DNA of 64,000 nucleotides. It comes from an uncultured Poribacteria bacterium (GTDB lineage Bacteria; Poribacteria; WGA-4E; WGA-3G). The position numbers and the translations under genes were made by a program. The notes beneath the pieces were generated by a model. It saw nothing but the letters and a program-made list of their open reading frames with translations, was not told where the DNA came from and searched no databases. The DNA lies in NCBI GenBank assembly GCA_951828385.1, contig OX639973.1, positions 6,178,845 to 6,242,844 of the forward strand, given 5' to 3'. Positions 29,744-33,895 of the stretch are shown here, piece by piece (the first letter of the stretch is position 1; each line of letters starts with the position of its first letter).

Positions 29744-30592
29744 TTAAGACAAGTTTTTTTCCTGATATTCGAGAGGTGTCAAATACCCTAACGCCGAATG
29801 TGGGCGTTTCTGATGATACACCTGTGTGATAAAATGACCGATGCGATCTCTTGCCTCATGGATGTCCTCGTAGTCGTTGAGATGAACTTCTTCCTCCTTG
29901 AGAGTTCGGATGAGTCTTTCGGCATATCCATTCTCCCAAGGGCGCCCTCTGTGTGCTACGGAAATCTCAATCCCATGACGGATGAGAGTGGAAATATAAG
30001 CATTTGAAAGATACTGCACGCCTTGATCGGAATGGTGGATCCCTGGAGACCCGCTTTGGTGTAATGCATCTTCCAAGGGTTTCAAAGTTAGAGAATGCGT
30101 CAAATGCTGACTCAGATGCCACCCTCTAATCATGCGAGTGAAGACATCCATGAGAAGCGCGACATAGACGAAGCGTCCTTTCAGGCGAACGTAGGTAATA
30201 TCGCCAACCCAGACCTGATCGGGGGCAGAAACCTCAAGGGACTCCAAGCGATTCACCCACCGAAACCCGGTTGTCTCCGACGATCTCGTGGTTTGACAGC
30301 AAACCCGTTTGACGCAAACCGAGAGGTTCTCTTCTCTCATCAACCGGGCAACGCGTTTATACCCGACGGTGTATCCTTGACGCAGTAGCAACGCTCTGAT
30401 GCGCCTATATCCATAGGTCGGATACCGAGCAGCTAACGTCTCTATTTCATCTCGTAGAACGTCTTCAGACGGATCGACTTTCGGTTGATAATAGAAGGTA
30501 CTCTTGTTGAAACCCAACGTTTCACAAATCTGTCGCACTGAATACTCCTTGCGCAACGTCTCAATGAGGCATCGCTGTTGAGATGGATTCAA
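29744..30592 (-). CDS. IS3-family transposase OrfB (DDE integrase domain)
   Basis: The 282-residue protein has an N-terminal helical HTH_21 region and an rve integrase core. The DDE triad is visible as WVGDITYV, HHSDQGVQYL and ENGYAERLIRTLK. TTG at 30592 overlaps the orfA stop as TTGA. The frame is open upstream into the A8 run of orfA, so the active enzyme is probably the OrfAB fusion made by -1 frameshifting. Confidence 0.95.
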   Translation of the reverse strand: MNPSQQRCLIETLRKEYSVRQICETLGFNKSTFYYQPKVDPSEDVLRDEIETLAARYPTYGYRRIRALLLRQGYTVGYKRVARLMREENLSVCVKRVCCQTTRSSETTGFRWVNRLESLEVSAPDQVWVGDITYVRLKGRFVYVALLMDVFTRMIRGWHLSQHLTHSLTLKPLEDALHQSGSPGIHHSDQGVQYLSNAYISTLIRHGIEISVAHRGRPWENGYAERLIRTLKEEEVHLNDYEDIHEARDRIGHFITQVYHQKRPHSALGYLTPLEYQEKNLS

Positions 30593-30873
30593 TCCAACAA
30601 AGTCAATGCTTTTTTTTGGATTTCCAACGCCAACGTCAGTCGACCAACAAGTTGCTCAAGTTGAGCGATCCGCTCCGTCGCCTCGCTGGAGTGCTTATCC
30701 GTGGAAGCAAATACAGATGCCACATTTTCAACGACTTGCTGCTTCCACTTCGAGAGCTGTTGTTCGCTGAGGTTATGGCGCCGACAGAGTTCTGCTTGTG
30801 AACTTTGACCGCTGAGTGCCTCAAGCACGACTTCTGCTTTAAACTCAGGGGTGAATTTTCTTCGTTTCGCCAT
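30589..30873 (-). CDS. IS3-family transposase OrfA (helix-turn-helix)
   Basis: The 94-residue protein has the HTH_Tnp_1 pattern (RRKFTPEFKAEVVLEAL...AELCRRHNLSEQQLSKWK) and a C-terminal leucine-zipper region. Near its 3' end the codons CAA AAA AAA G form an A8 run, the usual slippery site for -1 frameshifting into orfB. The slip would read on as KSIDFVGLNPSQQR. Confidence 0.93.
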   Translation of the reverse strand: MAKRRKFTPEFKAEVVLEALSGQSSQAELCRRHNLSEQQLSKWKQQVVENVASVFASTDKHSSEATERIAQLEQLVGRLTLALEIQKKALTLLD

Positions 30874-31048
30874 CGGAATGCTCCTTTCAATAAGATTGTT
30901 ATTGTATCACAATCTTGTTTTAGAGAGTGGTCTAAATTTCCGGTGGCAGTACAGTGCCTAATACTTTAACCAGACTTACGCAGAAAGCGCGCCTACTAAA
31001 AACGATGAATCGCGTAAGCCTTAACTTTAAATATGTGACAACGTACGC

Positions 31049-31364
31049 ATGAAGTTTAATAAAATATTTGGGTAATTCTGCGTTCTCCCAGGTCCGGTAG
31101 GTGCGGTTTGATGAAGTTTAAGAAAATATTTCGGTAATCAACGGGCAATAAATGGTTTCCCTACTACAAACAGACGGGCTCGTAGTAGTGCGATTCTGCG
31201 GTGTACTCACCCAAATTTTGCCCACACGCGGCAAAATTTGTCTTTGCTTTACATTTGCGAAGTGCATTATCGCACGTTCTGATATTACCGAATTAATAAA
31301 TTAATCTTCATCAACCGCACCGGACTTCCCAAAGAAATTACCCGATTAAATTCTTAATCTTCAT
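31049..31364. repeat. Nested inverted repeats of an interspersed palindromic family
   Basis: An inner pair of arms of about 42-48 bases lies at 31091-31138 and 31284-31325 (GGTCCGGTAGGTGCGGTT... and ...AACCGCACCGGAC). An outer pair, ATGAAGTTTAATAAAATATT at 31049 and its degenerate complement ending CTTCAT at 31364, encloses it. In the centre, CAAATTTTGCC and GGCAAAATTTG form a perfect 11-bp stem (31212-31240). The same arms occur at 33655-33728. The rest of 30954-31384 contains no gene. Confidence 0.75.
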
Positions 31365-31400
31365 CTGTGCGTTTACAATGTATAGGAGAAAAGTCAATAA

Positions 31401-31598
31401 CCCCGCCCTAAAGGACGGGGCTTGTACAAGATGGTAGCCAACCTATAACTTGTGTAAGGGTAACTTATTGACTACAGTAGTATATCGCGGTGTCTTGGTG
31501 TGGCAGCCAAAATAATGTTTCGGATGCTCCCCAAGTCTGGTTCTTCTTGGACACTGTGATCTGGATGGGGCAATACATACTCGAAAGAGGTTTACGTC
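31401..31598 (+). ncRNA. Predicted omega-RNA upstream of isrB
   Basis: IscB and IsrB use a structured RNA encoded just 5' of the gene, with the guide taken from DNA flanking the left end. This 198-base untranslated stretch fits. It contains the end hairpin at 31401-31420, a CTTGTACAAG palindrome at 31421-31430, repeated GGTAGCC/GGCAGCC segments, and CTCCCCA complementary to TGGGG about 30 bases later. The assignment is by position and structure; the guide would derive from bases just upstream of about 31390. Confidence 0.55.
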
Positions 31599-32621
31599 AT
31601 GTTCGTGCCAGTTGTAGATAAGAATCAACACCCTCTAATGCCTACGAAGCCTTCAAGGGCGAGGCGTTGGATAGAATCAGGGAAGGCAACTCCTTTTTGG
31701 GATAACGGTATTTTCTGTGTGCGTCTAAACGTTGATCCATCGGATACTGAGTTCCAAGAGATTGCTGTCGGTGTAGACCCAGGCAGTAAAAAGGAAGGCT
31801 TTACTGTTAAATCCGAATCACATACCTATTTGAATGTGCAAGCAGACGCACATAATCAAGTGGGTAAGAAAGTGGAAAAGCGTCGTGAGTTGCGGAGAGG
31901 CAGACGCTCACGGAAGTGTCCAAACAGAAAGAATCGTACCAATAGACTTGCGAATAGAGAACGTATTCCGGCAGGCACCCGCGCCCGTTGGGAATGGAAA
32001 CTCCGTATTCTTGAGTGGTTCTCCAAACTTTATCCAATCACACATGTTTGTGTAGAAGATATTAGGGCTGAAACGAAACAGTATCAAAAGAAGTGGAATC
32101 AATCGTTTAGCCCTCTTGAAGTCGGCAAACAGTGGTTCTATACTGAGGTTCAGAAACGTTGGGAGTTGTTAACACTTCAAGGGTGGGAGACGCAAGCAAT
32201 ACGGGATAGCCTCGGTCTCAAGAAGTCTTCCAAGAAACTCTCTGAAGCCTTTGAAGCCCATTGTGTGGACAGTTGGTGTTTGGCGTATCACACGGTTGGA
32301 GGGGCTTCTCCGCCTGACTATATAGACTTGATGTGTGTTTCACCGATACCTATCATCAGACGCGAACTCCACAGACAAAACCCTCAAAAAGGGGGGAAGC
32401 GTCCACGCTATGGTGGCACGACTTTCAAGGGATTGGTGAAGAACACACTCGTCAAACACGTCAAACACGGTTTGACCCGTATCGGTGGCTTTGGCAAACA
32501 AGGTATTTCGCTATATTCTTTGGAAGGTAAACGTCTTTGCCAAAATGCTAAAATAGCAGACTGTAAGGTACTCACACGCCTTAACTTTAACTATAGGAGC
32601 GGTGTTTCCTCCCCCGCCTAA
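31599..32621 (+). CDS. isrB: IsrB (HNH-less IscB-like RNA-guided RuvC nuclease)
   Basis: The 340-residue protein opens with the PLMP domain (HPLMPTKPSRARRW), which is specific to the IscB/IsrB lineage from which Cas9 arose. RuvC-I is VGVDPGSKKEGF, the arginine-rich bridge helix is KRRELRRGRRSRK, RuvC-II is VCVEDIRAE, and RuvC-III is AHCVDSWCLAY. IscB has an HNH domain between RuvC-II and RuvC-III; here only about 70 residues separate them and there is no CxxC...HxxP pattern, so this is the IsrB type. Characterised IsrB acts as a guided nickase. All RuvC acidic residues are present, so activity is plausible. Confidence 0.88.
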   Translation: MFVPVVDKNQHPLMPTKPSRARRWIESGKATPFWDNGIFCVRLNVDPSDTEFQEIAVGVDPGSKKEGFTVKSESHTYLNVQADAHNQVGKKVEKRRELRRGRRSRKCPNRKNRTNRLANRERIPAGTRARWEWKLRILEWFSKLYPITHVCVEDIRAETKQYQKKWNQSFSPLEVGKQWFYTEVQKRWELLTLQGWETQAIRDSLGLKKSSKKLSEAFEAHCVDSWCLAYHTVGGASPPDYIDLMCVSPIPIIRRELHRQNPQKGGKRPRYGGTTFKGLVKNTLVKHVKHGLTRIGGFGKQGISLYSLEGKRLCQNAKIADCKVLTRLNFNYRSGVSSPA

Positions 32622-32647
32622 AGACAGGGGGTTCCACACCGAAGATT

Positions 32648-33639
32648 TTGATGAATTATTTGAACGTGTTGAAGAATGCAACTTTTTTGGTCTTCGGACT
32701 CTTATTAATCTATATCTGTGGCTGTGATCGGGTTCAGGATATGATCCTCTCTGAACCGCAAGACGCGATGGATGCTGCCCCAATTCAGGTGAGTGTTGTC
32801 TATCCGGGTGACTGCCTTGGCGATTCCTCTTACTGTGATGTCCTCTATAACGGTGTCCAGAAAGCCAAAGCCGAACTTAGCGTTGAGATCACCGAAATGG
32901 AGAGCAATTTCGAGACATGGGATATGCAGTTGCAAGCGGCTGCTGCAAATTCAGGGCTCGTTATCACTTCCGGTTATCAAATGGCAGACCCGATTTCACG
33001 CGTCGCACCAGAATTTCCAGACGTTATGTTTGTCATTTTTGACGCTGCCGTGGATCTGCCGAATGTAGTTTCTTTCACCCATCGAGTCAACGAAGGGACA
33101 TTTCTCGTTGGCGCGATTGCCGGATTAAAATCGAAAACAGGAAAAGTCGGTTACCTCGGCGGCGCGAATGTTCCGTTACTGCACGAATTTGAAGCCGGTT
33201 ACCTCGCCGGTGTCAAAGCCGTCAATCCGGACGCTGAGATTGTCAGAGGTTATGTCGCTGACGATCAACAGGGTTTCTACGATCCGGTGTCGCACCGGGC
33301 ATAATTCTAACAGGGCTGCGCGTCGGAATCGACGAGTCGACATATAAGGTTATCCAAGAATTCGCAGCTGGGAATCTGATGGCAGGTGTTCGGGATCTCG
33401 GTCTCGCTGAAGGCAATGTCGGCTATCTTTTGGGTGAAGGCAACAAGGATTTGATCTCTGATGACATCTTAGCAAAGGTCGAAGCATTGAAGGCGAGCAT
33501 CATAGCTGGTGAGATTGCTGTTCCAACGGTACCGGAACCTAACGTTCAAGGCACAGTTATACCGCCGACGACATCGGATGATGAAGAAGTTACGACACCC
33601 GTGGTTGACGGCACAGAAATACCACCAGTTATACCGTAA
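32648..33639 (+). pseudogene. BMP/PnrA-family substrate-binding lipoprotein, internally deleted and frameshifted
   Basis: The first part (32648-33304) encodes a lipoprotein signal (LLLIYICGC) and the first lobe of a basic-membrane-protein family nucleoside-binding protein, through GKVGYLGGANVPLLHEFEAGYLAGV and IVRGYVADDQQGFYDP. It then hits a stop in another frame. From about 33288 the C-terminal end resumes in a different frame (LRVGIDESTYKVIQEF... to a Thr/Pro-rich tail). The middle of the second lobe is missing, so this is a deletion plus frameshift, not a single sequencing error. Relatives feed ABC transporters; none is adjacent. The IsrB element ends just upstream. Confidence 0.75.
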
Positions 33640-33654
33640 TGTCTATTTTCCGAG

Positions 33655-33728
33655 GCCCGGTAGGTGCGGTTTCCTAACCGCACCGGGCTTCGTTATGAAA
33701 TTACCGAATTAATTTTTAAATCTTCATA
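33655..33728. repeat. Palindromic repeat, compact copy of the nested family
   Basis: GCCCG, a GTAG bulge and GTGCGGTT pair with AACCGCAC and CGGGC around TCCT (33655-33688). The string ATTACCGAATTAATTTTTAA then leads to CTTCAT at 33728, as in the arm at 31284-31313. This appears to be the unsplit form of the palindrome. Bases 33729-33895 show nothing else. Confidence 0.7.
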
Positions 33729-33895
33729 AGCAATTTTCAGTATTAAAACTTCAGTTCTGATCTCCATATGGATTGGACGATAGGAAGCGTGAAAGCAAGT
33801 AAATAGAAGGTTCATTCCATATTGACTTGTTTTCAAATCTTCCTCAAAACTTGAAACTTATTATTTAATATTGCTTAAAACCTCGCCACATAAAA

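What the first reader, a model, noticed from the sequence alone, without database searches (positions are those of the whole stretch)
31385..32632. IsrB element with predicted 5' omega-RNA, seemingly intact
The protein has PLMP, RuvC-I/II/III and a bridge helix but no HNH, which marks the rare IsrB branch of the IscB/Cas9 ancestry. All RuvC acids are present, both ends carry matching CCCCG...CGGGG palindromes, and about 200 untranslated structured bases lie 5' of the gene. It is flanked by repeat copies on both sides, which may be its preferred landing sites.
Basis: partly seen in the sequence, partly recalled or inferred. Interest (0 to 1): 0.72.

Follow-up and report, generated by a model that had tools for sequence, protein, structure and literature searches.

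The report
IsrB transposon parked before start codons
This is a real, apparently intact IsrB element (a small RNA-guided DNA nickase from the ancestry of Cas9) in a sponge-symbiont bacterium; it and its relatives often insert exactly between a gene's ribosome-binding sequence and its start codon, and their right end seems to carry a replacement ribosome-binding site, which may let them sit in front of genes without switching them off.

Summary
The reading "intact IsrB with 5' omega-RNA" holds. The protein matches DtIsrB by sequence and fold, lacks HNH and keeps all RuvC catalytic residues (86/86 relatives). The omega-RNA matches HEARO and covaries strongly across 69 relatives. An orthologous empty site fixes the element at 31393-32650 (1258 bp, no duplication), with guide 31373-31392 and TAM ATGA.

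Two things go beyond the finding. (1) The TAM is a host gene's start codon and the guide holds that gene's Shine-Dalgarno. Of 78 independent insertions in Poribacteria, 73 abut ATGA/GTGA and 5 ATGG; 33 lie between a Shine-Dalgarno and the start of an ORF of at least 60 codons (4.2% of control sites). (2) The right end carries its own AGGAG at the foot of a hairpin, mostly 7-10 nt from the start codon if the hairpin is looped out: a 'split' ribosome-binding site, at 66/78 ends (control 3.2%), recurring in viral-contig relatives. Its AGG codon is used 54/59 times, against 10% elsewhere. I infer that the element replaces the signal it displaces. Residue 315 covaries with the TAM's fourth base. 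The flanking 'landing-site' repeats are not supported. Nicking and translation are untested.

The parts
31373..31392 (+). predicted 20-nt guide (host leader; contains the displaced Shine-Dalgarno AGGAG)
   Evidence: directly 5' of the left boundary; relative L130 carries the same 20 nt joined directly to ATGA; guide position by analogy with DtIsrB (PMC9581776)
31393..32650 (+). complete IsrB element, 1258 bp, no target duplication
   Evidence: empty site in L130/L131; sharp loss of similarity at both ends among copies
31393..31598 (+). omega-RNA scaffold (HEARO type); terminal stem 31393-31400 with 31465-31472; first hairpin 31401-31420
   Evidence: RF02033 hit 31393-31595; covariation in 69 relatives
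31599..32621 (+). isrB, 340 aa; stop codon lies in the loop of the right-end hairpin
32595..32599 (+). AGGAG, right-end Shine-Dalgarno at the 5' foot of the hairpin (overlaps codons of YRSG)
   Evidence: codon bias; same layout in relatives
32600..32641 (+). right-end hairpin (CGGTGT...ACACCG)
   Evidence: similar to the end hairpin of resident IS605 tnpAB elements
32642..32650 (+). 9-nt spacer AAGATTTTG between hairpin and start codon
   Evidence: 7-11 nt in 78 of 80 copies
32651..32654 (+). TAM/target motif ATGA, the start codon of the host gene
   Evidence: TAM NTGA known for DtIsrB
32651..33301 (+). 5' part of the host gene, a Bmp/PnrA-like lipoprotein gene, now frameshifted by a deletion of about 148 bp
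   Evidence: Pfam Bmp 2.1e-37; orthologs open (347-428 aa open frames; 365 aa in L130)

Best explanation
An intact non-autonomous IS200/IS605-type element carrying IsrB and its omega-RNA. Shown by comparison: it inserts without duplication just 5' of ATGA/GTGA (rarely ATGG), very often exactly between a host gene's Shine-Dalgarno and its start codon. Inferred: the host leader is transcribed with the element, giving guide, omega-RNA, isrB and host gene on one message. IsrB with this RNA nicks the unoccupied site (leader plus start-codon TAM) so that repair restores or keeps the element, while the occupied site is spared because the element separates guide match from TAM. The right end carries an AGGAG that its hairpin brings to about 7-10 nt from the host start codon, a transposable split ribosome-binding site replacing the one displaced. 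Mobilisation is by a Y1 transposase in trans, perhaps that of resident IS605 tnpA-tnpB elements with similar end hairpins.
For: IsrB. Omega-RNA. Boundaries and empty site; second case at purD, interrupted in G006 only, with purD single-copy there and a 425-codon ORF. Mobility: near-identical copies at three sites in this genome. Start-codon position: 33 of 78 sites have SD plus ORF of at least 60 codons against 4.2% of control sites, p 5e-25; downstream ORFs include purD, thiI, a dnaN paralogue, a TonB receptor, an ABC ATPase. Split RBS: 66/78 against 3.2%; Arg codon AGG 54/59 against 10.2%, Ser AGY 52/52 against 31%; SD kept beyond the isrB stop in L063, L064, L068, L076, L079, L091; the three copies with a non-start motif (ATAG) lack it; same layout in viral-contig relatives, 17/31, and some that lack the hairpin have an SD directly before the ATG. 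Precedent: T4 genes 38 and 25 (PMC3014915). TAM: residue 315 Q/T with ATGA/GTGA, R with ATGG/ATAG, as for DtIsrB Q326 (PMC9581776). Shared end hairpins with IS605.
Against: No expression, nicking or translation data. In the window the host gene is now a frameshifted pseudogene, so insertion here may have impaired it. About half of the sites lack a convincing SD-plus-ORF context. AGGAG could in part be conserved for transposase binding. Counts share ancestry within the element family. The IS605 elements in this genome use other target motifs (TTAT or TTTAA-like), so the actual transposase is unidentified. The HEARO score is below Rfam's curated cut-off. The AF2 model is of modest confidence (pLDDT 62).
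Confidence: 0.75

Rival explanations
1. Ordinary IsrB element whose start-codon bias is only target-motif bias plus survivor bias: NTGA resembles start codons, insertions inside genes are purged, and AGGAG at the right end is a transposase-binding or coding constraint with no role in host translation.
For: DtIsrB itself reads NTGA, with TTGA and ATGA nicked (PMC9581776). Resident IS605 family B has ATAGGG at the corresponding foot of its own end hairpin. The window's host gene has decayed.
Against: Does not predict insertions between SD and ATG of long ORFs at ten times the control rate, nor purD staying intact and single-copy behind an element, nor absence of the SD in the ATAG copies, nor retention of an SD through different letters in relatives (TATAGGAGC here, TGGAGGACG in viral contigs), nor a nearly constant 7-11 nt spacer.
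Confidence: 0.2
2. The downstream gene is translated by reinitiation after isrB, whose stop codon lies about 30 nt before the host ATG, and not through the right-end Shine-Dalgarno as such.
For: In most copies the isrB stop lies in the loop of the right-end hairpin shortly before the host start.
Against: In L063, L064, L068, L076, L079 and L091 isrB stops before the SD and hairpin, yet SD, hairpin and spacer are kept. The two routes could act together.
Confidence: 0.15
3. The copy in the window is a decaying remnant without activity.
For: Its host gene is a pseudogene, and no other copy in this genome is closer than 79% identity to it.
Against: Full-length ORF, all catalytic and TAM-reading residues, a complete omega-RNA and both ends are kept; dN/dS is low.
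Confidence: 0.1

Closest known systems
IsrB of Desulfovirgula thermocuniculi (DtIsrB, PDB 8dmb; PMC9581776)
   Same: Domain order PLMP, RuvC-I, bridge helix, RuvC-II, RuvC-III, C-terminal TAM-interacting domain; about 350 aa; no HNH; 5' omega-RNA; TAM NTGA with ATGA nicked; R323/Q326 correspond to R312/Q315 here (constant offset of 11).
   Different: About 30% identity over the structural alignment; omega-RNA scaffold about 206 nt here against a 284-nt RNA including a 20-nt guide in DtIsrB; start-codon insertion and a right-end Shine-Dalgarno are not described in the passages read.
HEARO RNA (Rfam RF02033) / IscB omega-RNA
   Same: Full-length covariance match over the 5' region; same position 5' of the nuclease gene.
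   Different: Scores below the curated threshold; the partner here lacks HNH.
IS200/IS605 tnpA-tnpB elements (family B in this genome: L118, L121, L123)
   Same: End hairpin very similar (43 nt at 88% identity); insertion next to a tetranucleotide, no duplication.
   Different: They carry their own tnpA and use target TTAT; the IsrB element has no tnpA and uses ATGA (TCAT on the other strand).
Split ribosome-binding sites of phage T4 genes 38 and 25 (PMC3014915)
   Same: A hairpin between SD and AUG shortens an over-long spacing to a working one.
   Different: Those are fixed gene leaders; here the arrangement sits on a transposon end. Function here is inferred, not measured.

Membership tests
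IsrB (OMEGA nickase) | PLMP domain, RuvC I-III with catalytic residues, bridge helix | tested here: met
   D60, E153, H221, D224 in 86/86 relatives and aligned to DtIsrB; Pfam RRXRR 6.7e-36
IsrB (OMEGA nickase) | no HNH domain, about 350 aa | tested here: met
   340 aa, only RRXRR in Pfam; best sequence and fold hit is DtIsrB rather than IscB
IsrB (OMEGA nickase) | structured omega-RNA directly 5' of the gene | tested here: met
   HEARO hit, covariation with pseudoknot
IsrB (OMEGA nickase) | TAM of NTGA type 3' of the target | tested here: met
   inferred from insertion sites and the empty site: ATGA/GTGA, ATGG with R315
IsrB (OMEGA nickase) | RNA-guided nicking of the non-target strand | not testable with these tools
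   no assay data
IscB | HNH domain between RuvC-II and RuvC-III | tested here: not met
   no HNH in Pfam; NCBIfam guided_IscB 96 bits, below its cut-off of 175
HEARO RNA (RF02033) | score above Rfam gathering threshold | tested here: not met
   38.5 bits against 83, E 6.7e-6, full-length match
IS200/IS605 superfamily element | terminal hairpins, insertion beside a short fixed motif, no target duplication | tested here: met
IS200/IS605 superfamily element | mobilised by a Y1 TnpA | tested here: inconclusive
   no tnpA inside the element; 12 Y1 matches in the genome, some with similar ends but other target motifs
Split ribosome-binding site (T4 gene 25/38 type) | SD, hairpin, short spacer, start codon in this order | tested here: met
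   66/78 Poribacteria and 17/31 viral-contig copies, control 3.2%
Split ribosome-binding site (T4 gene 25/38 type) | translation depends on the SD and on the hairpin | not testable with these tools
   needs reporter assays

The most novel reading that the evidence does not exclude
IsrB elements of this clade are specialised for start codons: a start codon is the TAM, the displaced ribosome-binding leader is the guide, and the right end carries a transposable split ribosome-binding site that keeps the host gene translated, a translational counterpart of elements that make their insertions silent.
Probability: 0.6. Interest if true: 0.78.

Novelty: new variant of a known kind. Interest (0 to 1): 0.62.

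Why it matters
It would explain how a transposon in the ancestry of Cas9 can reach 20 or so copies per genome while sitting in front of useful genes, how its guide RNA and nuclease obtain a promoter (the host's), and why TAMs of this family look like start codons. It allows a simple reporter test, and offers a natural series of proteins in which one residue (315) tracks the fourth TAM base.

Tried and rejected
Single-sequence folding of the omega-RNA is uninformative (z -0.26), and so are z-scores of single right ends (-0.4 to -2.1); only covariation and comparative evidence carried weight. dnaN as proof of tolerance in an essential gene: dropped, because those genomes hold 5-6 clamp-domain matches. 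A resident transposase using the same TCAT-type target: not found among the Y1 loci examined. Rfam at the gathering threshold found nothing in the window. Literature: no held paper joins IscB, TnpA and start-codon insertion or, among those listed, describes a right-end Shine-Dalgarno of IsrB/IscB elements. The HEARO, ISC and OMEGA discovery papers are not held, so priority cannot be excluded.

Full report
1. What is there. The ORF 31599-32621 (+, 340 aa) is an IsrB. phmmer against solved structures gives DtIsrB (8dmb) first, E 2.1e-38, over residues 3-281; Pfam gives only RRXRR; NCBIfam's IscB model matches below its cut-off. In an alignment of 86 distinct proteins plus the DtIsrB segment, the L-M-P of PLMP, D60, E153, H221, D224 and the bridge-helix arginines R95, R99, R102, R103, R105 are invariant. 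An AF2 model (pLDDT 62) has DtIsrB as best Foldseek hit, E 1.4e-21, TM 0.64, ahead of IscB structures. dN/dS of this copy against relatives has a median of 0.085 (synonymous sites near saturation); 102 closer pairs give 0.16.

2. Omega-RNA. HEARO (RF02033) matches 31393-31595 end to end, E 6.7e-6, 38.5 bits, below the gathering score of 83. On 69 left ends of relatives RNAalifold finds 33 pairs, 25 with two-sided changes. Adding the terminal stem and the CCCC(A/T)-(T/A)GGGG pseudoknot gives 45 pairs in 8 helices: 93.8% of cells paired, 404 two-sided changes, 0 of 500 shuffles as high; slid controls are 29-40% paired. The RNA is supported by covariation, not by single-sequence energy (z -0.26).

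3. Exact element and empty site. The genome is one 6.66-Mb contig with eight IsrB genes, one of them interrupted, and a small fragment; relatives are Candidatus Poribacteria. 37 of 60 related genomes have matches, up to 22 each. Near-identical copies L004-L006 share everything from GTCAA to the target motif and diverge outside. Orthologs of the downstream gene in L130 and L131 read tttacaatgtataggagaaaa|ATGAACTATTTG; the window reads the same with 1258 bp (31393-32650) inserted at the bar and nothing duplicated. A second case: in G006 an element splits a 450-bp stretch exactly at the purD start codon; the matches in nearly all other genomes cross that point uninterrupted.

4. The target is often a start codon. 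At 78 insertion sites with unrelated flanks the motif after the right end is ATGA 67, GTGA 6, ATGG 5 (five boundaries were re-read so that the element ends in G like the others, and three copies at ATAG or with unclear ends were set aside). At 42 sites an ORF of at least 100 codons begins exactly there (control [AG]TG[AG] sites in the same flanks: 16.9%). At 35 the left flank ends in a Shine-Dalgarno (13.7%). At 33 both hold, with an ORF of at least 60 codons (4.2%, p 5e-25). Reconstituted host spacing is mostly 4-8 nt. Downstream ORFs include purD, thiI, a beta-clamp paralogue, a TonB receptor, enolase-superfamily enzymes, an ABC ATPase and an alcohol dehydrogenase. purD is single-copy in G006 and 425 codons long with all three domains.

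5. The right end carries a Shine-Dalgarno. In the window: AGGAG 32595-32599, hairpin 32600-32641, spacer AAGATTTTG 32642-32650, ATGA at 32651. Linear distance from AGGAG to ATG is 51 nt; with the 42-nt hairpin looped out it is 9. Across 80 parsed copies an SD-like motif sits at the 5' foot in 65, and the 3' spacer is 7-11 nt in 78. A separate search for SD, perfect stem, spacer and start finds it at 66 of 78 element ends against 3.2% of control ORF starts. The Arg codon in the overlapping YRSG motif is AGG in 54 of 59 against 10.2% elsewhere in the same genes, and Ser is AGC/AGT in 52 of 52 against 31%. In L063, L064, L068, L076, L079 and L091 isrB has already stopped, yet the SD remains. L080, L082 and L083, whose motif is ATAG and hence no start codon, lack it; these three are related and may count as one event.

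6. Beyond Poribacteria. 36 viral-contig loci encode relatives at 43-58% identity. Of 31 distinct ones 17 show the same layout, 15 with an ORF of at least 50 codons. There the SD is written TGGAGGA(C) instead of TATAGGAGC, so the letters shift while the SD stays. Several copies without the hairpin have an SD directly before the ATG (L200, L210, L213, L217, L223). In Leptolyngbya (L161, 55% identity) the left flank ends TTGGAGAGTAACT, the right end reads CGGAGATTTCTT|ATGA, and an annotated CDS starts there. Stanieria and Dolichospermum plasmids also have GGAGG or GAGG just before the ATGA.

7. TAM and protein change together. DtIsrB reads TAM base 4 with Q326, and Q326R accepts G (PMC9581776). 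The equivalent residue 315 (offset 11, inferred from equal spacing and length because the retrieved DtIsrB alignment ends earlier) is Q or T in copies at ATGA/GTGA and R in copies at ATGG or ATAG; Fisher p 6e-12 on 81 copies counted by hand, uncorrected for ancestry. This links protein, TAM and insertion site independently of the RNA evidence.

8. Mechanism. Shown by comparison: element limits, target motif, omega-RNA structure, conserved catalytic protein, start-codon position, SD-hairpin at the right end. Inferred: transcription from the host promoter through the guide; nicking of the vacated site and re-copying of the element, as proposed for TnpB, whose TAM equals TnpA's insertion motif (PMC11870625), with the open question of how a nick suffices; looping-out during initiation, as measured for T4 genes 38 and 25 (PMC3014915); mobilisation in trans by a Y1 transposase. 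Resident IS605 family B shares 43 nt of end hairpin at 88% identity but targets TTAT.

9. Limits. The window's own host gene is a pseudogene now (148-bp deletion), so benign insertion is not universal. Nearly half of the sites lack a long ORF at the ATG. AGGAG might partly serve transposase binding. Related copies inflate the codon statistics. From memory, the HEARO report noted integration at ATGA/GTGA; that paper could not be read here.

10. Verdict. The element is a new member of IsrB with a right-end arrangement that I did not find reported in the papers searched; hence new variant of a known kind, interest 0.62.

Noticed in passing
window 31047-31366: MITE-like inverted-repeat element (nested arms, 76-81% complementary) inserted in the leader of the same gene, absent from orthologous loci L130/L131.
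   Followed up: partly
window 32651-33800: Bmp/PnrA-like lipoprotein gene decayed: about 148-bp frameshifting deletion and a later insertion relative to the 365-aa ortholog in L130.
   Followed up: partly
window 29744-30873, - strand: Two-ORF IS3-family-like transposase (by eye) just upstream of the MITE-like element; a cluster of mobile elements.
   Followed up: no
L070 / L173 (G017:C2): An IsrB element inserted exactly at the start codon of a tnpA gene of an IS605-type element.
   Followed up: partly
L059, L060: IsrB element before the start codon of a DNA polymerase beta-clamp paralogue in two genomes; these genomes hold several clamp-like genes, two of them adjacent.
   Followed up: partly
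L164 1415-1492: A group II intron match (RF00029) ends just 5' of an IsrB gene on a Dolichospermum plasmid, where the omega-RNA should be.
   Followed up: no
L007 and L009 (G000:C1:4960216-4961311): One IsrB copy in this genome is interrupted near codon 270 by inserted sequence.
   Followed up: no
L080, L082, L083: Related IsrB copies at ATAG rather than a start codon, with Arg at residue 315 and no right-end Shine-Dalgarno.
   Followed up: partly
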